DNA from: Acidimicrobiales bacterium
GTDB lineage: Bacteria > Actinomycetota > Acidimicrobiia > Acidimicrobiales > GCA-2861595
DNA length: 54,741 nucleotides
Assembly: GCA_036262515.1 (NCBI GenBank)
Contig: DATAIT010000006.1
Coordinates: 1-54,741, forward strand
Reading direction: 5' to 3'
Part shown: in pieces, positions 43,467-54,741 of the stretch
Numbering within the stretch: the first letter of the stretch is position 1
Layout of the letters: each line of letters starts with the position of its first letter
Made by a program: the position numbers and the translations under genes
Notes under the pieces: model-generated
The model's input: the letters and a program-made list of their open reading frames with translations, nothing else
The model's database searches: none
Told to the model about the DNA's origin: nothing

Positions 43467-43874
43467 CTACAGGTCCGGGAAGAAGAGGTGGATCTCCCGC
43501 TCCGCTGACTCGGGCCCGTCGGACCCGTGGACCAGGTTCTCCCCGACGAGGGTGCCGAAGTCGCCCCGGATCGTCCCGGGAGCGGCCTCTTTGGGGTCGG
43601 TGACGCCCATGAGCGTGCGCACCACCTTCCAGGTGTCCTGCGGACCCTCGACGACCACCAGCAGGGCGGGCGACCGGGTGATGAACTCCACCAGCTCGCC
43701 GAAGAAGGGGCGCTCGGCGTGCTCGGCGTAGTGCCGGGCGGCCAGATCGGCGTCGATGAGGCGCAGTTCGGCGGCGACCAGTGTGAGGCCCTTGCGCTCG
43801 AGCCGGCCGACGATCTCCCCGGCCAGGCCGCGCTCGACGGCGTCGGGCTTGACGATGACGAAGGTGCGATCCAT
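43467..43874 (-). CDS. ndk: Nucleoside diphosphate kinase
   Basis: Product of 135 residues. It transfers the terminal phosphate between nucleoside triphosphates and diphosphates. It begins MDRTFVIVKPDAVERGLAGE. The usual NASD segment near the C-terminus, with its active-site histidine, is modified: the sequence reads ENLVHGSDGPESAEREI, so HGSD replaces HGSD/HASD forms and the catalytic histidine is present. Length is typical. It lies 13 bp after folC, as in mycobacteria. Confidence 0.95.
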   Translation of the reverse strand: MDRTFVIVKPDAVERGLAGEIVGRLERKGLTLVAAELRLIDADLAARHYAEHAERPFFGELVEFITRSPALLVVVEGPQDTWKVVRTLMGVTDPKEAAPGTIRGDFGTLVGENLVHGSDGPESAEREIHLFFPDL

Positions 43875-43887
43875 GAGGCTGGGGACC

Positions 43888-45291
43888 CTACAGGTCCGCC
43901 GGCGCCGACCTCACATCGCCGTCCCGAGATCGCAGCACGGTACGGGCTGCGCCCACGACGTACAACGACCCGGTGATCAGCACCCGGTCGTCCTCCCCGG
44001 CCTCGGCCAGGGCGGCCTCGACTGCGCCGGGCACCGACGCCGCCTCGACGGCCGCCACACCCAACGACCGCGCCGCGGCGGCGATCGCGGCGGCCGGCTG
44101 CGACCGGGGAGACGGCGCAGGGCAGGCGACGATGAGGCGGGCGGTCTCGAGGCCCAGCGCCACGAGCATCTCGGCCGCGTCCCTGCCCTGGAGCATGCCC
44201 ACGACGGCGATGAGGCCGCCGTCGCCGGCGAACTCCTCGGCCACCGTGGCGGCCGCCGCCTTGGCGCCGGCCACGTTGTGGGCGCCGTCGAGGAGAACCA
44301 GGGGATGGCGCCCCATCACCTCCATGCGCCCCGGCAGCCGCAGCCCACCGAAGGCCTCCGACACCACGTCGTCGGGAAGGGGTCCGCCGAAGAACGCCTC
44401 GGCGGCGGCCACGGCGAGGGCGGCATTGGTGGCCTGGTGGGCGCCGTGGACGGGCAGGTAGACGTCGTCGTACTCCCCCGTCGACGTGCGCAGGCTGACC
44501 AGCCGCCCGCCCACGGCGGCCCGATCGGCGCGCACGCCGAAGTGGCGGTCGATCTCCACCGTCCGCCCGGCGCCGGCCCGGCGGAACACCGCAGCGAGGG
44601 CGTCGCTCGTCTCCCCGAGGACGAGCACGCTGCCCGGCTTCACGATGCCGGCCTTCTCGGCTGCGATGCCCGCCAGTTCGGGCCCGAGCACGTCGGTGTG
44701 GTCGAGGCTCACGTTCGTGACGACCGCAACCTGGCCGTCCGCCACGTTGGTGGCGTCGTAGAGGCCGCCGAGCCCGACCTCGACGACGGCTGCGTCGACG
44801 GCCACGTCGGCGAACCAGCGGAACGCGGCTGCGGTGAGGATCTCGAAGCGGGTCAGCTGGCTGTCGAGCAAGCCCTCCAGAGCGGCGACGGCCTCCAGCA
44901 CGGCAGCCAGGTCGTCGTCGGCGATCGGCTCCATCGACGGAGCCGGCACCGGCCCCGCCCGACCGGAACCCGCCGCCGGAGCGTCGATGTGTCCCTGGGT
45001 GAGCGCGATGCGCTCGTTCACCCCTTCGAGGTCGGGACTGGTGTAGGTGCCCACGGTCAGGCCTCGCCCGGCCAGCAGCGCGGTGATCATACGGGCGGTG
45101 GAACCCTTGCCGTTCGTGCCGGTGAGGTGGACCACGGGGAAGGCGGCCTGCGGGTCGCCCATGAGGGCGCACAGGCGCCGCATCCGGTCAAGGCTCGGCT
45201 CCGGGCGGCCGGCCACGACGGCCTCGAGGTTGACGTGGGCCTCCAACCAGGCCAGCGCCTCGGCGTAGCTCCACCCCGTGCCGGTGCTCAC
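43888..45291 (-). CDS. folC: Folylpolyglutamate synthase / dihydrofolate synthase
   Basis: Product of 467 residues from a GTG overlapping the stop of the ValRS-like gene (GTGA). It adds glutamate to folates and may also make dihydrofolate from dihydropteroate. The ATP loop VVHLTGTNGKGSTARMI, the TSPDLEGVNERI segment, VVEVGLGGLYDATN, NVSLDHTDVLG and the C-terminal domain motif VLLDGAHNVAGAKAA are all present. The valS-folC-ndk order is widespread in actinobacteria, which helps identify the gene upstream. Confidence 0.95.
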   Translation of the reverse strand: MSTGTGWSYAEALAWLEAHVNLEAVVAGRPEPSLDRMRRLCALMGDPQAAFPVVHLTGTNGKGSTARMITALLAGRGLTVGTYTSPDLEGVNERIALTQGHIDAPAAGSGRAGPVPAPSMEPIADDDLAAVLEAVAALEGLLDSQLTRFEILTAAAFRWFADVAVDAAVVEVGLGGLYDATNVADGQVAVVTNVSLDHTDVLGPELAGIAAEKAGIVKPGSVLVLGETSDALAAVFRRAGAGRTVEIDRHFGVRADRAAVGGRLVSLRTSTGEYDDVYLPVHGAHQATNAALAVAAAEAFFGGPLPDDVVSEAFGGLRLPGRMEVMGRHPLVLLDGAHNVAGAKAAAATVAEEFAGDGGLIAVVGMLQGRDAAEMLVALGLETARLIVACPAPSPRSQPAAAIAAAARSLGVAAVEAASVPGAVEAALAEAGEDDRVLITGSLYVVGAARTVLRSRDGDVRSAPADL

Positions 45292-47039
45292 CGGCCCACG
45301 AACGGGCCGGTGAGTTCCTGCACCGTCGCCGTGCCGAGCGCGCCGGCGCCCTCGGAGGCGGCGGCGAGGACGTCGAGGGCGGCCGCGGGTGCAGCGGCGG
45401 CGAAGGCGGCGTCCATGGCTGCCTCGACCACCACGTCGGTCCGCGCCGGACCGGCCTGGTCGAGGCGAGCGACGAGTTCGCGGGCGGCGCGCACGTCGAG
45501 GGCTCCGCCCAGGAGGGCGAGGCGCACGGTCGGGGTGCCCTCCCGGGCCACCAACGCCTGGACATCCACGGGAGCCGAGGGGTCGACCTCGTCCACCGAG
45601 TGGGTCCACGGCAGGACGGCGACCTCGTCGAACGGGACGGCACCGTCGAGGCGGAGGCCGAGGCCGACCATGGCGAGCACGTCGTCACCGCCCGCGCCGC
45701 CGCGCATGAGGAACAGGACCGGCCCGGCCGTGCTCTCGGCGTCGCCGCGCCCCGCCTCGGGCCACCCGGTGACGGACAGAGGCACCAGGCAGCGGACGAA
45801 CCGGGCGTCGAGCACGTCGGTCTCCGGGACGAGGTCTCCCATGCAGCTGCCGCACGACGGGGTGGGATCGACCGAGACGTCGACGTGGCCGCAGTCCAGG
45901 CAGCGCCCGACGGGCACGGGGACACCGGCCCAGAGCTGGCGGCTCAGGCACCATTCGTCCGCCGTCCCCGCGCCAGCCAGGAGGTCCTCACGGGCTGCGG
46001 CCGGCCACACCGCCAGCCGGCCGTCGCGGATGGCGTCGGCCGCCGCCGTCTCCAGGTCGATCGCCGAGAGGAGCCAGTGCGTCCCGAGCAGCGGGACCAG
46101 GACGCTGCGGCAGGCCGCGCAGCGCTCCACCTCCTCCACCCCTGGGGCGGCGGTCACCACCACCCGTTCCGCCTCGAGAAGCTGGCGGGCGGAGGAGCGG
46201 GCCGCGTACCGGGCAAGACCCTCCAGCGGTCCGGCGCTGCGCACGAATCCGTCCGGGTCGAGAACGGGGACGGAGGGAAGCCCCTGCCGCCTGGCCAGTT
46301 CGAACGCCGGCTGATCGTGGGCCGGCATCACGAACGTCGGGCGGGCGACGCCGGAGTCCTCCACCACGGGGACCATCGACGGAGCCAGCGGCACGTCGGC
46401 GAACCGGCCGGCTGCCGGGTGCCCCTCCGGCACGGCCACCGCCACCGTCCCCGGCAGGAGCTCGGCGGCGAGGCAGGGCGCGTCCAGATGGGCCTCGCCG
46501 GCGCCGTCGTCGGCGAGCTCCACGCGCACGGTCAGGACGTCTGCGTCGAGCTGCGCCGGGACTGTGCCAGGCGGGCCGACGGTGGAACGACACACCGGGC
46601 ACGCGCCCACCACCCGATCGCCTCGGCGCACCACACCGGCGTCGAAGAGGCGGACGAAGGCGGTGCGGGCCGCCTCGGCCGCCGCCTCTCCGGCGCGGAC
46701 GGCATTCCCTGCGTCGAGCCCGAGGGCCAGCGCCGACGCTGCGGCGGCCAGGTCGGCCTGCGCCCTGTCCCTGCACGCGTCGAGGCGGGCCGCGAACGCC
46801 TCTCGCCCGATCACCGCCTTGTCCAGACCCTCGTGGACGAGCTCGTCCTCGGCCGCTCGCTGGGCCGCCGGCCCCCCGAAGAGGGCAGACGCCCGCCAGC
46901 GCAGCGCCCCGCCCGTGGTCCGGGCCCGCCGCAGGAGGACGTCGGCGGCCACGAGCGGAGCCAGATGCGCGGTGGAGATCCCGCCGGGGAGGGGAACCGG
47001 GCTGGTGAGGACCAGCGAGCGGGCCGGTGGGCCCTCCAC
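45288..47039 (-). CDS. Degenerate valyl-tRNA-synthetase-like protein lacking HIGH and KMSKS motifs
   Basis: Product of 583 residues, against about 850-900 for ValRS. Similarity to class I ValRS is spread along its length: EDELVHEGLDKAVIGREAF (64-82), CPVC (147-150), the editing-like PAHDQPAFELARRQGLP (239-255), CAACRSVLVPLLGTHWLLS (307-325), DEWCLSRQLWAGVPVPVG (361-378), a CxxC pair at 380/383 and 396/399, and DVLDARF (408-414). The HIGH site reads STAH (22-25) and the KMSKS position reads THSVDEVDP (479-487), so amino acid activation is unlikely. The GTGA.K editing segment is altered but the PAHD aspartate remains. The C-terminal anticodon-binding domain is missing. It occupies the valS position before folC and has an intact frame with normal codon use. 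Possible roles are trans-editing or regulation; both are guesses. Confidence 0.8.
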   Translation of the reverse strand: MEGPPARSLVLTSPVPLPGGISTAHLAPLVAADVLLRRARTTGGALRWRASALFGGPAAQRAAEDELVHEGLDKAVIGREAFAARLDACRDRAQADLAAAASALALGLDAGNAVRAGEAAAEAARTAFVRLFDAGVVRRGDRVVGACPVCRSTVGPPGTVPAQLDADVLTVRVELADDGAGEAHLDAPCLAAELLPGTVAVAVPEGHPAAGRFADVPLAPSMVPVVEDSGVARPTFVMPAHDQPAFELARRQGLPSVPVLDPDGFVRSAGPLEGLARYAARSSARQLLEAERVVVTAAPGVEEVERCAACRSVLVPLLGTHWLLSAIDLETAAADAIRDGRLAVWPAAAREDLLAGAGTADEWCLSRQLWAGVPVPVGRCLDCGHVDVSVDPTPSCGSCMGDLVPETDVLDARFVRCLVPLSVTGWPEAGRGDAESTAGPVLFLMRGGAGGDDVLAMVGLGLRLDGAVPFDEVAVLPWTHSVDEVDPSAPVDVQALVAREGTPTVRLALLGGALDVRAARELVARLDQAGPARTDVVVEAAMDAAFAAAAPAAALDVLAAASEGAGALGTATVQELTGPFVGR

Positions 47040-47047
47040 GACGGTGG

Positions 47048-47863
47048 TTACGCGACCTCGATCAGCACGTGCGGTCCGCCGCTCGACGGCGCGGCCGCAG
47101 CCGGGGGGCTGGCCGGGACGGCGGCTCGCGCCGCCTTCTCACGGGCCAGATCGGCGACATCGTGCGCGCGCCGGGCCGCCTGCTCGACGTGCGGGCGGGC
47201 GACCACGGCCGCCTTGGCCGCCTGCTGGCGACCGACGGCGGCGGCGTGCTCCAGCTGCGGGAGGGCGGCGCGGGCCGCCTTCCTCGCTTGGCGCCGAGTG
47301 GTCTTGGCCGCACGCTCGACGCGGGGGCGCGCCTTCTCCGCCGCCTTGGCCGCCTTGGCGGCCTGCCTGCGGCCGAGGGCGGCGGCGTGCTCCACGTGGG
47401 GTCGGGCGGCGCGGGCCGCCTTCTTGGCCTGGCGCCGGGTGGTCTTGGCCGCTCGCTCGACACGGGGCTTGGCCGCCTCGGCCGCGCCCTCGGCCTTGTC
47501 GCGGGCGGCCCTGGCCGCCGTCTCGACATGGGGCCGCGCCATCTCGGCCGCGTGCATTGCCACTTCGAGGGCGTGCTCGAACGCCGGGCGTGCCGAGCGG
47601 GCGACGTCGTACTTCGCGGCATGGCGGGCAGCGGCGGCCGTCGCTGCCGCGGCCGCCTTCCGGGCCTTCTTGCGGGCTCTCCGCTTGCCGCGCACGGTGA
47701 ACAGGAGGCCCACGGCGGCGCCGGCGGCGGCCGCCTCGGCGCCCACCTTGGCGGCCTGGTTCACCATCTGATCGATGGTCTCGTCGCGGGTGTAGGCCTG
47801 GTAGGCCGTGTACCCGGCGCCACCCAGCCCGCCGAGCAGGGCGAACTTCAGCATCTTTCCCAT
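47048..47863 (-). CDS. Ala/Arg-rich helical repeat protein
   Basis: Product of 271 residues; family not recognised. A short hydrophobic N-terminus (about 5-22, glycine-rich) and a second apolar patch (about 41-56) precede a basic stretch ([15 protein letters not shown]). Residues 91-230 form repeats of about 22 residues, each opening with a P-x-(V/L/F)-E motif (prolines at 93, 111, 133, 155, 180, 202, 224). Within these, residues 133-179 and 180-226 are a near-exact 47-residue duplication. The tail is Pro/Ala-rich. It may be a long amphipathic helix or a histone-H1-like basic protein. It lies between clpX and the ValRS-like gene, 8 bp from the latter, so it probably shares its transcript. Confidence 0.75.
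47186..47467 (-). repeat. Tandem 141-bp repeat, two copies
   Basis: Two adjacent 141-bp units (47327-47467 and 47186-47326) encode the 47-residue duplicated segments beginning [14 protein letters not shown] in both. The match is clear at the DNA level too, for example GTGGTCTTGGCCGC occurs in both units. This suggests a recent duplication inside the gene, on top of an older 22-residue periodicity. Confidence 0.75.
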
Positions 47864-47989: not shown

Positions 47990-49264
47990 TCAGGAGGCGG
48001 CGCGCCTCGGGCGGGTCTCCTTTTCGGGCGCCGTCCGCGGCACGAGGGTGGGGTGGACCCGGTCGAGCACGACCGCCCGGTCGACCACGCACTTGCCGAT
48101 CTCGGGCCGGCTGGGCAGCTCGTACATGACCTGGAGGAGGACCTCCTCGAGGATGGCCCGCAGGCCACGGGCCCCGGTGCCACGCAGCAGGGCCTGCTCA
48201 GCCACCGCCTCGAGGGCGTCGGCGGTCAGCTCCAGCTCCACGTTGTCCAGCTCGAGGATCTTGCGGTACTGCTTGATCAGGGCGTTCTTGGGCTCCATCA
48301 GGATGCGTACCAGCGCCTCCTTGTCGAGCCCCGACACGGCGCCGATCACCGGCAGCCGCCCCACGAACTCGGGGATGAGGCCGAACTTGAGCAGGTCCTC
48401 GGGCAGCACGTGGGCCAGCGTCTCGCCCTCGTCCCGCTCGGCCTGGCGCTTGATCTCGGCCCGGAAGCCCATCCCCTTGCGACCGATGCGGTTCTCGATG
48501 ATCTTGTCGAGGCCCGCAAAGGCCCCACCGCAGATGAACAGGATGTTGGTGGTGTCGATCTGGATGAACTCCTGGTGGGGGTGCTTGCGCCCCCCCTGGG
48601 GCGGCACCGAGGCGGTGGTGCCCTCCAGGATCTTCAACAGCGCCTGCTGGACCCCCTCGCCCGAGACGTCACGGGTGATCGAGGGGTTCTCCGACTTGCG
48701 GGCGATCTTGTCGATCTCATCGATGTAGATGATTCCCGTCTCGGCCTTCTTGACGTCGTAGTCGGCGGCCTGGATGAGCTTGAGGAGGATGTTCTCGACG
48801 TCCTCCCCCACGTAGCCGGCCTCGGTCAGCGCCGTGGCGTCGGCGATGGCGAACGGCACGTTCAGCATCCGCGCCAGCGTCTGTGCCAGCAGCGTCTTGC
48901 CGCAGCCTGTGGGGCCCAGGAGGAGGATGTTGGACTTGGCCAGCTCGACCTCGGCGTCGTGGTAGGCGTCGGCCTGGACCCGCTTGTAGTGGTTGTAGAC
49001 GGCCACGGACAGGATCTTCTTGGCCCGGTCCTGGCCGATCACGTAGTCGTCGAGGAAGGTGAAGATCTCGCGGGGCTTGGGAAGCTCGTCGAAGCGCAGC
49101 TCCGACGACTCGGCCAGCTCCTCCTCGATGATGTCGTTGCAGAGGTCGATGCACTCGTCGCAGATGTAGACGCCGGGCCCGGCGATGAGCTTCTTGACCT
49201 GCTTCTGCGACTTGCCGCAGAAGCTGCACTTGACCAGATCACCGCCGTCTCCGAACTTGGCCAC
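47990..49264 (-). CDS. clpX: ATP-dependent Clp protease ATP-binding subunit ClpX
   Basis: Product of 424 residues. ClpX unfolds substrates and feeds them to ClpP. The N-terminal C4 zinc finger is CSFCGKSQ ... CDECIDLC (residues 13-41). Walker A is [15 protein letters not shown], Walker B is [11 protein letters not shown], and the [20 protein letters not shown] and [10 protein letters not shown] blocks and the R-rich sensor 2 region are intact. Length is typical. It follows clpP by 21 bp. Confidence 0.97.
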
Positions 49265-51642: not shown

Positions 51643-52179
51643 ATGAAGGCAGATGTTCGCGCGCACGTTGCCGACGTTGACGTGCGTCGCGCTTTGGCGC
51701 GGATCACGGCGCTTCTCCAGTCCGCCTATGCCCACACGGGGGTCCCGACCGAGACCCGTCACTGCCTCGACCAGCTCTCTGCCGAGGTCGAAGGGCTCAC
51801 CGAGGTCTACGGGCGCCTGACGCAGCCCGGGGCCGGTGCGGGAGGTACTGCCGTCGGCCCGGCCGTGCGCGACGCGCTCTTCCTGGGAAGCATCGGCGCC
51901 CCCTCCCGTCCATCAACGGATCCCGAAGCCCAGCTCCGAAAGCTCACTCCCCAGGAGCGGAGGATCCTCGACTTCATCGCCGAAGGCTGCACGAACCGCC
52001 AGATCGCGACTGAGCTGTTCCTGGCCGAGAAGACCATCAAGAACTACGTCTCGAACATGCTCCGCAAGCTGGGCATGGAGCGCCGCACCCAGGCCGCCGT
52101 CTTCGCCACCCGCCTCGACCAGACCTCGACGTCGGACGCGAAGGCCAGAAGCGCTTTCGCCGAAGCTGCGTGTACGTGA
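51643..52179 (+). CDS. LuxR/DosR-type helix-turn-helix protein without receiver domain
   Basis: Product of 178 residues. The C-terminal HTH (about 100-160) reads LTPQERRILDFIAEGCTNRQ, then IATELFLAEKTIKNYVSNML and GMERRTQAAVFATRL. It is very close in pattern to the DosR/DevR DNA-binding domain. The first 95 residues are a helical region with no phosphoacceptor aspartate pattern, so this is not a classical response regulator. It is probably a transcription factor responding to another input. It is preceded by GGGGGG at a proper distance from the ATG. The secreted-protein gene follows 61 bp downstream and may be co-transcribed. Confidence 0.87.
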   Translation: MKADVRAHVADVDVRRALARITALLQSAYAHTGVPTETRHCLDQLSAEVEGLTEVYGRLTQPGAGAGGTAVGPAVRDALFLGSIGAPSRPSTDPEAQLRKLTPQERRILDFIAEGCTNRQIATELFLAEKTIKNYVSNMLRKLGMERRTQAAVFATRLDQTSTSDAKARSAFAEAACT

Positions 52180-52240
52180 CTTCCGTCCCGGCTCGCCCGA
52201 TCCGCCGGCGCCCGTCGTCGGCCGTCGTCGGGACCGCGAC

Positions 52241-54741
52241 GTGAGCCGGAGCAGTCCGACGGCGTCTCACCCGTCGCCTCGTCGGGGTCGGGCGGCCGTT
52301 CTCGCCCTGGTCATCGCGCTCGTCGCGACACTCCCCTTCGTGACGCCGGTCCGCGCCGCCAGCCCGTGCGACCCCCCGGTCACCAGCATCATCGCCTGCG
52401 AGAACTCCAAGCCGGGGAACCCGGAGAGTGAGTGGGACGTCACCGGAGCGGGGGACACGTCGATCCAGGGCTTCACCACCGACGTGAGCGTCAACGTCGG
52501 GGGGACCGTCGGGTTCAAGGTCAACACCAACGCCCGCTCGTACGTCCTGAACATCTACCGGGTCGGCTACTACGGCGGAGCGGGCGCCCGGAAGATCGCG
52601 ACGGTCTCCCCGTCGGTCGGACTTCCCCAGAGCCAGCCCGCCTGCATCAACCAGTCGTCCACCACCGGCCTGGTCGACTGCGGGAACTGGGCGCTGTCCG
52701 CGTCCTGGTCGGTGCCGTCCACCGCCGTTTCCGGTGTCTACATCGCCCGGCTCGTCCGCTCCGACACGGGCGGAGCAAGCCACATCCTGTTCGTGGTCCG
52801 AGACGACTCGAGCCACTCCGATCTGCTGCTGCAGACGTCGGACACCACGTGGACCGCATACAACTCTTACGGCGGGAACAGCTTGTATGTCGGCCAGCCC
52901 GCAGGCCGGGCGTACAAGGTCAGCTACAACCGGCCCCTCATCCTGCGCGGCGACCAGTACATGCGGGCGAACTTCTTCGCCAATGAGTACCCGATGGTCC
53001 GATGGCTGGAGTCCAACGGCTACGACGTGTCGTACACGTCCGGAGTGGACACCGAGCGGGCGGGAGCACGCATCCAGCAGCACGGGACGTTCATCTCCTC
53101 CGGCCACGACGAGTACTGGTCCGGAGGCCAGCGGGCGAACGTGGAGGCGGCCCGCGACGCGGGCGTGAACCTTGCCTTCTTCAGCGGGAACGAGGTGTTC
53201 TGGAAGACGCGTTGGGAGAACAGCGTCGATGCCTCCTCCACCGCCTACCGCACCCTCGTGACGTACAAGGAGACGAAGGCGGGGGCCAAGATCGACCCAA
53301 ACCCGGCGTGGACGGGGACGTGGCGGGACCCGAGGTTCAGCCCGCCGGCGGACGGGGGGCGGCCCGAGAACGGGCTCACGGGCACCATCTTCACCGTCAA
53401 CTGCTGCTGGGCGGCGTCCATCAAGGTTCCCGAGGACGACGGCAAGCTGCGCTTCTGGCGAGGCACGAGCGTCGCCTCGCAACCCACGGGCGGCGTCGCC
53501 ACGCTGGCGGCCGGGACGCTCGGGTACGAGTGGGACGAGGACCTCGACAACGGGTCTCGCCCCGCCGGACTGGTCGGGCTGTCGTCCACGACCATCGACG
53601 TCTCCCAGAAGCTGCTCGACTTCGGCGACACCTACGGGAACGGGCGGGCCACGCACCGCCTCACGCTCTACGGCGCGCCGAGCGGCGCGCTGGTCTTCGG
53701 CGCAGGCACGGTGCGGTGGTCCTGGGGGCTCGACGAGGTGCACGACGACGGCAGCTCGACCGCCGACGTGCGCATGCAGCAGGCAACCGTGAACCTGCTC
53801 GCCGACATGGACGCGCAACCGGCGACCATCCAGGCCGGGCTCACGGCAGCATCCAAGACCAGTGACACGACGGCGCCGACGGCCAGCATCACTGCTCCGG
53901 CGGCCGGAGCGAGCTACACGAACGGCAGCACGATCACCGTCGTCGGCACCGCCTCCGACGGCGGCGGTGGCCGGGTGGGGGGTGTCGAGGTGTCACTCGA
54001 CGGCGGGGCGTCGTGGCACCCGGCCACCGGACGCCAGTCGTGGAGCTACAGCGGACGGGCCACGGGGCTCGGCCCAACGACCGTGAAAGCCCGTGCCACC
54101 GACGACAGCGGGAACATCTCGCCGACCCCGGCGTCCGTCAACGTCACCGTCAACTGCCCGTGCTCGCTGTTCGCCACGTCCGCCGTCCCAACGGTGACGT
54201 CGTCGAGCGAGGCGGCTGCGCTCGAGCTCGGGGTCAAGTTCAGTTCGGACGTGAACGGATCGGTCACGGGCGTGCGCTTCTACAAGGGGACCGGCAACAC
54301 CGGCACCCACACCGGCACCCTGTGGACGTCGGGAGGAACACGGCTGGCGACGGCCACGTTCACCGCCGAGACCGGCTCCGGCTGGCAGCAGGTCACGTTC
54401 CCGTCACCGGTCGCCATCTCGGCCGGTGCCACGTACGTCGCCTCGTATTACACGCCCAGTGGGCGGTATGCGGTGGACGGCAACTACTTCGCCGTCGCTG
54501 TCGACAGCCCGCCGTTGCACGCGGTCAAGAGCACCGCGAACTCGGGCAACGGCGTCTACTTCTACGGCGCGGGGTTCCCCTACCAGAGCTACAACGCGTC
54601 CAACTACTGGGTCGACGTGGTCTTCACGGCCAGCACCACTCCCGACACCGTCGCCCCGACCGTCACGTCGACGTCGCCTGCCGCCGGAGCGAACGGTGTG
54701 GCCACCGGCGCCAAGCCCCAGGCCACGTTCTCCGAGGCCGT
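52241..54741 (+). CDS. Secreted N,N-dimethylformamidase-like protein with Ig-like and DUF4082 domains, cut by the right edge
   Basis: The frame opens with a GTG at 52241 and runs off the right end with no stop (833 codons visible). A signal peptide covers about residues 1-40 (basic start, hydrophobic core, cut near VRAAS). Residues about 50-525 resemble the large subunit C-terminal domain of N,N-dimethylformamidase (LNIYRVGYYGGAGARKI, the SYNRPLILRGDQYMRANFF region, SGHDEYWSGGQRANVEAARD, FFSGNEVFWKTRWE). A bacterial Ig-like domain follows (about 540-630, ITAPAAGASYTNGSTITVVG). Next is a DUF4082 domain (about 635-790, GVRFYKGTGNTGTHTGTLW), and finally the start of a Big_5-like domain (SPAAGANGVATGAKPQATFS). 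It is extracellular, with carbohydrate or surface binding likely. Enzymatic activity is unproven. The start lacks a strong ribosome binding site. Confidence 0.85.
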   Translation, partial: MSRSSPTASHPSPRRGRAAVLALVIALVATLPFVTPVRAASPCDPPVTSIIACENSKPGNPESEWDVTGAGDTSIQGFTTDVSVNVGGTVGFKVNTNARSYVLNIYRVGYYGGAGARKIATVSPSVGLPQSQPACINQSSTTGLVDCGNWALSASWSVPSTAVSGVYIARLVRSDTGGASHILFVVRDDSSHSDLLLQTSDTTWTAYNSYGGNSLYVGQPAGRAYKVSYNRPLILRGDQYMRANFFANEYPMVRWLESNGYDVSYTSGVDTERAGARIQQHGTFISSGHDEYWSGGQRANVEAARDAGVNLAFFSGNEVFWKTRWENSVDASSTAYRTLVTYKETKAGAKIDPNPAWTGTWRDPRFSPPADGGRPENGLTGTIFTVNCCWAASIKVPEDDGKLRFWRGTSVASQPTGGVATLAAGTLGYEWDEDLDNGSRPAGLVGLSSTTIDVSQKLLDFGDTYGNGRATHRLTLYGAPSGALVFGAGTVRWSWGLDEVHDDGSSTADVRMQQATVNLLADMDAQPATIQAGLTAASKTSDTTAPTASITAPAAGASYTNGSTITVVGTASDGGGGRVGGVEVSLDGGASWHPATGRQSWSYSGRATGLGPTTVKARATDDSGNISPTPASVNVTVNCPCSLFATSAVPTVTSSSEAAALELGVKFSSDVNGSVTGVRFYKGTGNTGTHTGTLWTSGGTRLATATFTAETGSGWQQVTFPSPVAISAGATYVASYYTPSGRYAVDGNYFAVAVDSPPLHAVKSTANSGNGVYFYGAGFPYQSYNASNYWVDVVFTASTTPDTVAPTVTSTSPAAGANGVATGAKPQATFSEA

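What the first reader, a model, noticed from the sequence alone, without database searches (positions are those of the whole stretch)
45288..47039. ValRS-like protein without catalytic motifs sitting in the valS slot of a valS-folC-ndk locus
The 583-residue product aligns by eye with ValRS along much of its length (EWCLSRQLW, DVLDARF, PAHD...FE, three zinc-type CxxC groups). However, HIGH reads STAH, the KMSKS site has no lysines, and the anticodon-binding C-terminus is missing. The frame is intact over 1.75 kb and the gene overlaps folC by 4 nt, so it is probably maintained and translated. A retained editing-type PAHD aspartate without activation motifs would fit a trans-editing or regulatory paralogue. 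A genuine valS must then exist elsewhere in the genome.
Basis: partly seen in the sequence, partly recalled or inferred. Interest (0 to 1): 0.75.

Follow-up and report, generated by a model that had tools for sequence, protein, structure and literature searches.

The report
Conserved dead remnant of valyl-tRNA synthetase
In an order of actinobacteria, the original gene for the enzyme that loads valine onto its tRNA was replaced by a foreign version, yet the old gene stayed in place, lost its catalytic parts and is still kept intact by natural selection in many genera, which suggests an unknown non-catalytic job.

Summary
The gene is on the minus strand (45288-47039, 583 codons). It encodes a protein with the fold of valyl-tRNA synthetase (ValRS). 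HIGH, GTDHAG and KMSKS are gone and the C-terminal anticodon part is missing; all eight zinc cysteines are kept. The host's real ValRS is elsewhere (852 aa, alt_ValS type). The window gene is not an isolated relic: 15 genomes from 13 genera and 10 families of the same order (Acidimicrobiales) carry it after clpX, mostly before folC, without frame damage in most. Sister orders hold a full active valS in exactly that place, so this is the native valS, displaced and turned into a pseudo-ValRS. Purifying selection is strong: in one close pair dN/dS is 0.05 at dS 0.29 (14/4/54 changes at codon positions 1/2/3). Trans-editing is not supported: the PAHD aspartate is kept in 11 of 13, but the threonine pair and the arginine of the editing site are lost. 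I conclude that it is a new family of non-catalytic, ValRS-derived proteins, acting most likely by binding; the partner is unknown. Some lineages have lost it cleanly and others have shortened it, so the order does not need it everywhere.

The parts
45288..47039 (-). pseudo-ValRS coding sequence, 583 codons, GTG start
   Evidence: fold of ValRS
46965..46976 (-). HIGH-equivalent, reads STAH (degenerate in all 13 aligned members)
46590..46601 (-). zinc CxxC 1 (C147, C150), invariant in the family
46458..46475 (-). editing-site TTRPET-equivalent, reads CLAAEL: threonine pair and arginine lost
46314..46325 (-). PAHD of the CP1 editing domain; aspartate kept in 11/13
46110..46121 (-). zinc CxxC 2 (C307, C310), invariant
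45843..45902 (-). zinc ribbon CxxC...CxxC (C380, C383, C396, C399), invariant
45798..45809 (-). DTWF-equivalent, reads DARF; W to R fixed in 12/13
45582..45596 (-). position of the KMSKS loop; no lysine, acidic or deleted in the family
45288..45291 (-). 4-nt overlap (GTGA) of the stop codon with the likely folC start
43888..45291 (-). folC
43467..43874 (-). ndk
47990..49264 (-). clpX, upstream flank of the slot
47048..47863 (-). Ala/Lys/Arg-rich repeat protein between clpX and the pseudo-ValRS; also present in some genomes without the pseudo-ValRS, so not a fixed partner

Best explanation
The gene is the native bacterial valS of this lineage, turned into a pseudo-enzyme. Early in the order Acidimicrobiales a foreign alt_ValS-type ValRS took over valine charging. 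The old gene between clpX and folC lost the motifs for adenylate formation (HIGH, GTDHAG, DTWF, KMSKS), the tRNA-anchoring end (most of the anticodon-binding part and the coiled coil) and most of the editing chemistry. It kept the folded core: the shell of the split Rossmann domain, the CP1 body and all four zinc CxxC groups. Shown: position by synteny, loss of motifs, predicted fold, purifying selection, occurrence across the order with absence in many lineages. Inferred: it is translated and works without catalysis, as a folded binding protein, much as HisZ works as a regulatory subunit. Its partner (a protein, a tRNA end or a small ligand) is not known. I take a protein partner or small ligand as more likely than tRNA, because the tRNA-anchoring C-terminus is gone and the protein is strongly acidic (pI 4.5-5.0) with 0-3 lysines.
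For: Fold: AF2 pLDDT 88.6, pTM 0.88; best solved match is Thermus ValRS 1gax, Z 28.1, 572 residues, rmsd 3.1. Working ValRS elsewhere: C111, 852 aa, HVGH and KMSKS, NCBIfam alt_ValS 1361 bits against a cut-off of 900. Orthologous slot: sister orders of the class have clpX-valS(HMGH, KMSKS)-folC-ndk-mreB, and a search with alt_ValS finds only that gene there. Family: 15 genomes, 13 genera, 10 families, next to clpX and, in all but one, followed by folC; one clade with 100% support. Motif loss: GTDHAG D and H 0/13, KMSKS 0/13; Zn Cys 13/13. Selection: the two G059 copies differ at 14/4/54 sites of codon positions 1/2/3, dN/dS 0.051, dS 0.285, LRT 129; G071/G018 0.031 and G000/G003 0.052, with saturated dS. 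The 21 positions fixed to a new residue are mostly hydrophobic, which fits packing rather than new chemistry. Acidic, lysine-poor. Precedent for non-catalytic aaRS-like proteins: HisZ, SLIMP (PMC9437257).
Against: No expression data and no known partner. It evolves faster than its neighbours (same-genus identity 61% against 82% for folC and 98% for clpX). Five of 15 members are C-terminally shortened or otherwise eroded (G012, G006, G008, G094, G051). G003 has no in-frame ATG/GTG/TTG near the expected start. Many genera of the order lack it cleanly. The join of the family to the class's own ValRS in the tree is weak, so descent rests mainly on synteny.
Confidence: 0.62

Rival explanations
1. 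Trans-editing factor: it hydrolyses Thr-tRNA(Val) made by the host's alt_ValS with its retained CP1 domain.
For: CP1 body, PAH(D) and zinc sites kept. The PAHD aspartate appears to correspond to IleRS Asp342 / LeuRS Asp345, which promote editing (PMC9023258; the correspondence is mine).
Against: The TT pair (3/13 and 1/13 kept) and the Arg (0/13) of TTRPET are lost, although the active slot ValRS of sister orders and the host's alt_ValS keep them; the PAHD Asp itself is lost in two of 13 (S, R); the second Asp is kept in only 4/13; the GTGAVK loop is shortened. ValRS is reported to edit mainly in cis (PMC9023258). The host's alt_ValS has its own TTRPEL and FGD editing motifs. No tRNA-anchoring C-terminus.
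Confidence: 0.08
2. Fading relic without a present function: a displaced valS on its way out, seen before it has been lost everywhere.
For: Faster evolution than neighbours; truncated members and one without a clear start codon; clean absence in many lineages.
Against: dN/dS 0.05 in a recent pair; protein identity 40-80% where synonymous sites are saturated; eight cysteines invariant in 15; no internal stop in most members; persistence in 10 families.
Confidence: 0.15
3. A new enzyme: the old synthetase cleft was rebuilt for other chemistry, as in other aaRS-derived ligases.
For: Fixed new polar residues such as R412 (from the DTWF Trp) and R305 (numbers as).
Against: Of 21 positions fixed to a new residue nearly all are hydrophobic or small; nothing conserved replaces the ATP-binding motifs; the HIGH region differs from genus to genus.
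Confidence: 0.1
4. The reading frame matters only in cis: its translation up to the folC start (4-nt overlap here) couples or tunes folC expression, and the protein itself is a by-product.
For: Overlap or very short distance to folC in many members.
Against: Codon-position pattern and dN/dS show selection on the protein sequence; genomes without the gene have folC right after clpX or after the Ala-rich gene; several members do not overlap folC.
Confidence: 0.05

Closest known systems
Bacterial-type valyl-tRNA synthetase (valS; TIGR00422, PRK14900, Thermus 1gax)
   Same: fold, domain order up to the start of the anticodon-binding bundle, zinc CxxC groups, slot between clpX and folC in sister orders
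   Different: no HIGH, GTDHAG or KMSKS, most editing residues lost, about 300 residues shorter, scores below all curated cut-offs
alt_ValS (NCBIfam NF000540), the host's working ValRS
   Same: same superfamily; serves valine charging in the same cell
   Different: only distantly related (bacterial-type slot ValRS align to it at about 32%), complete motifs, no CxxC groups at these positions, next to cysS on another contig
HisZ (HisRS paralogue, regulatory subunit of HisG)
   Same: aaRS-derived protein without adenylation activity, kept by selection
   Different: class II, known partner; here class I and partner unknown
LeuRS-I of Sulfolobaceae (and LeuRS2 of Halobacteria)
   Same: class Ia aaRS-derived second gene that does not serve ordinary charging; LeuRS-I has a damaged CP1 and an unusual acidic C-terminus
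   Different: LeuRS-I still makes leucyl-adenylate and binds tRNA(Leu) (PMC9437257); here the adenylation motifs are gone, and the dead gene is the native one
[quoted passage not shown]
   Same: aaRS paralogue with a role outside charging
   Different: class II, eukaryotic, known partners

Membership tests
valyl-tRNA synthetase (active enzyme) | class I HIGH signature | tested here: not met
   STAH here; first His 3/13, second His 5/13 in the family
valyl-tRNA synthetase (active enzyme) | KMSKS loop | tested here: not met
   0/13
valyl-tRNA synthetase (active enzyme) | GTDHAG and DTWFSS of the valyl-adenylate site | tested here: not met
   D and H 0/13; W to R in 12/13
valyl-tRNA synthetase (active enzyme) | anticodon-binding domain and C-terminal coiled coil | tested here: not met
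   no Anticodon_1 or Val_tRNA-synt_C match; structure match ends at 685 of 862 in 1gax; no stand-alone copy in six genomes
valyl-tRNA synthetase (active enzyme) | curated NCBIfam cut-offs | tested here: not met
   159/1783, 147/704, 145/612 bits
valyl-tRNA synthetase (active enzyme) | valine activation and tRNA(Val) charging | not testable with these tools
   needs ATP-PPi exchange and charging assays
class Ia aaRS fold of the I, L, M, V group (Pfam PF00133) | score over the Pfam gathering cut-off and fold match | tested here: met
   53.8 against 22.7 bits; 14 of 15 members match at E 0.01 or better; 1gax Z 28.1
class Ia aaRS fold of the I, L, M, V group (Pfam PF00133) | zinc-binding CxxC groups of bacterial ValRS | tested here: met
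   8 Cys invariant in 15; the metal itself was not tested
trans-editing protein | intact editing pocket (TTRPET, GTGAVKITPAHD) | tested here: not met
   PAHD Asp 11/13, but TT 3/13 and 1/13, Arg 0/13, Lys 0/13, second Asp 4/13. The Lys and the last Thr are also absent in alt_ValS, so the TT pair and the Arg carry the argument
trans-editing protein | deacylation of Thr-tRNA(Val) | not testable with these tools
   needs an assay
regulatory aaRS-like protein (HisZ kind) | binding to and control of a partner enzyme | not testable with these tools
   no partner known
pseudogene | absence of selection on the protein | tested here: not met
   dN/dS 0.03-0.05, LRT 129, 282 and 432 in three pairs

The most novel reading that the evidence does not exclude
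A displaced native aminoacyl-tRNA synthetase was turned, in its original operon position, into a non-catalytic protein family with a new function that has lasted through the diversification of an order of bacteria: the first such family derived from ValRS that I could find.
Probability: 0.5. Interest if true: 0.72.

Novelty: new variant of a known kind. Interest (0 to 1): 0.6.

Why it matters
aaRS-derived proteins with other jobs are usually spare copies. Here the order is reversed: the original gene became the dead one after a foreign enzyme took over, it stayed in its place, and selection still holds it. A 2022 review of aaRS-like proteins does not mention ValRS at all (PMC9437257), and I found no paper on this family in the library searched. 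It gives a natural before/after series (active slot valS in sister orders, dead slot gene here, clean absence in others) for studying how an essential enzyme becomes a pseudo-enzyme. It also warns annotators: automatic pipelines could call this gene valS.

Tried and rejected
Chance or frame artefact: rejected, since 15 genomes carry it. Split ValRS with a separate C-terminal partner: no stand-alone Val_tRNA-synt_C and no extra Anticodon_1 protein in six carrier genomes, apart from one partial Anticodon_1 match in G083 that lies in a 584-aa synthetase-like frame. Only ValRS of the cell: rejected. Long 1050-1160-aa frames matching the first half of the profile in other families looked at first like fusions with FolC; the one read in full (L176/L178, G011) is a complete bacterial-type ValRS at another place. 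Fixed partnership with the Ala-rich neighbour: rejected, it also occurs in genomes without the pseudo-ValRS. Remnants of the gene in non-carriers: none found in eight gaps examined. Using the last Thr of TTRPET (to Leu, 13/13) as proof of lost editing: dropped, because the active alt_ValS also has Leu there. The exact number of losses on the species tree is not firm: the tree is poorly resolved and the ingroup was not recovered as one clade. Plasmid search gave only ordinary ValRS.

Full report
WHAT IS THERE. The ORF runs on the minus strand from 47039 (GTG) to 45288 (TGA), 583 codons without a stop. Its neighbours are clpX (47990-49264), an Ala/Lys/Arg-rich repeat protein (47048-47863), folC (43888-45291), ndk and mreB, all on the same strand. 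It matches ValRS profiles along residues 4-473 (E 1e-46) but below every curated cut-off, and class I tRNA synthetases in Pfam. AlphaFold2 on 15 family members gives pLDDT 88.6, pTM 0.88, and the best solved match is Thermus ValRS 1gax (Z 28.1, 572 residues, rmsd 3.1, 24% identity), ending at residue 685 of 862.

WHAT IS MISSING AND WHAT IS KEPT. Against 22 bacterial ValRS, and against slot ValRS of the class and phylum plus the host's own ValRS type: GTDHAG Asp and His 0/13, KMSKS 0/13, HIGH degenerate, DTWF changed to DARF-like with W to R in 12/13, no coiled coil. In the CP1 editing site the TT pair (3/13, 1/13) and the Arg (0/13) are lost, the PAHD Asp is kept in 11/13 and the second Asp in 4/13. 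All eight zinc cysteines are kept in all members. Of 226 columns conserved in the slot ValRS of the class and phylum, 43 are retained; 21 columns have become fixed on a new residue, mostly hydrophobic.

THE REAL VALRS. The same genome (97.8% complete) holds a full ValRS on contig C111, 852 aa with HVGH and KMSKS, NCBIfam alt_ValS with 1361 bits against a cut-off of 900, beside cysS (by eye). The other 14 carrier genomes also have ValRS-profile matches besides the slot gene, in most of them one strong match in a frame of 846-1004 aa; in G094 it is interrupted, and in the incomplete genomes G071 and G006 only pieces were seen.

THE FAMILY AND ITS PLACE. Searches of the order found the short protein in 15 genomes from 13 genera and 10 families, downstream of clpX and in all but one followed by folC (in G059 clpX lies upstream but folC was not found). 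Named relatives are Acidimicrobiales/Actinomycetota MAGs. Searches of class and phylum found no further short members among the hits listed; there the best hits are full-length ValRS. In sister orders these sit between clpX and folC-ndk-mreB with the HIGH-type motif and KMSKS intact, and a search with alt_ValS finds only that slot gene, at about 32% identity. So the window gene is the positional orthologue of the class's native valS. The family forms one clade (100%) next to the slot ValRS of the class, but that join is weak and the branch long. Genomes of the order without the gene have folC directly after clpX or after the Ala-rich gene, with no remnant in the gaps examined. Carriers are spread among non-carriers in the tree, which fits one origin and several losses; the count is not firm.

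SELECTION. One MAG (G059) holds two alleles, 94.5% identical over 1306 bases without gaps: 14, 4 and 54 differences at codon positions 1, 2, 3, dN/dS 0.051, dS 0.285, LRT against dN/dS = 1 of 129. Deeper pairs give 0.03-0.05 but with saturated dS. The protein evolves faster than folC, ndk, clpX and mreB. The G012, G006, G008, G094 and G051 members are shortened, and G003 has no normal start codon near the expected place. The gene is thus constrained, but not equally in all lineages.

EXPRESSION HINTS. In about ten members a TAnnnT box lies a few bases before the start codon, as in leaderless transcripts; in the window genome and G003 the box is unclear and the gene follows the Ala-rich gene closely. 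The stop overlaps the folC start by 4 nt here. Neither is proof of expression.

HOW IT MAY WORK. With adenylation and charging motifs gone, editing residues mostly gone and the tRNA-anchoring end missing, catalysis is unlikely. The kept zinc core and CP1 body and the hydrophobic replacements fit a stable binding protein. HisZ and SLIMP are precedents for aaRS-derived non-catalytic proteins, and LeuRS-I of Sulfolobaceae for a class Ia relative that no longer charges tRNA (PMC9437257). What it binds is not known. The trans-editing proposal fails on the pocket residues; ValRS is also reported to edit mainly in cis (PMC9023258).

VERDICT.

Noticed in passing
window 47048-47863: Ala/Lys/Arg-rich protein with repeated PHVEHAA...GRRQAAKAA units and a short hydrophobic N-terminus; no Pfam match. 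Homologues sit after clpX in carriers and some non-carriers.
   Followed up: partly
L001 1417-3975 (G000 C111): The host's working ValRS belongs to NCBIfam alt_ValS, a model of type 'exception'; it lies next to cysS and apparently displaced the native valS in much of the order.
   Followed up: partly
L178 (G011), also G074, G030, G276: Other families of the order lack alt_ValS and match the profile with ~1050-1160-aa frames; the one read in full (G011, 1082 aa) is a bacterial-type ValRS without the zinc CxxC groups at another place: apparently a second replacement of ValRS.
   Followed up: partly
L012 and L216 (G059 C573 and C564): One MAG carries two alleles of the pseudo-ValRS, 94.5% identical; probably two strains in the bin.
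   Followed up: yes
L217 (G059 C573), just after the pseudo-ValRS: folC is not found downstream; a different frame (glycosyltransferase-like by eye) follows instead.
   Followed up: no
window 51836-54739: Long ORF open at the window end; its product looks secreted and repeat-containing by eye; not searched.
   Followed up: no
starts of members L011-L022: TAnnnT box about 7 bases before the start codon in about ten members, suggesting leaderless transcription.
   Followed up: partly
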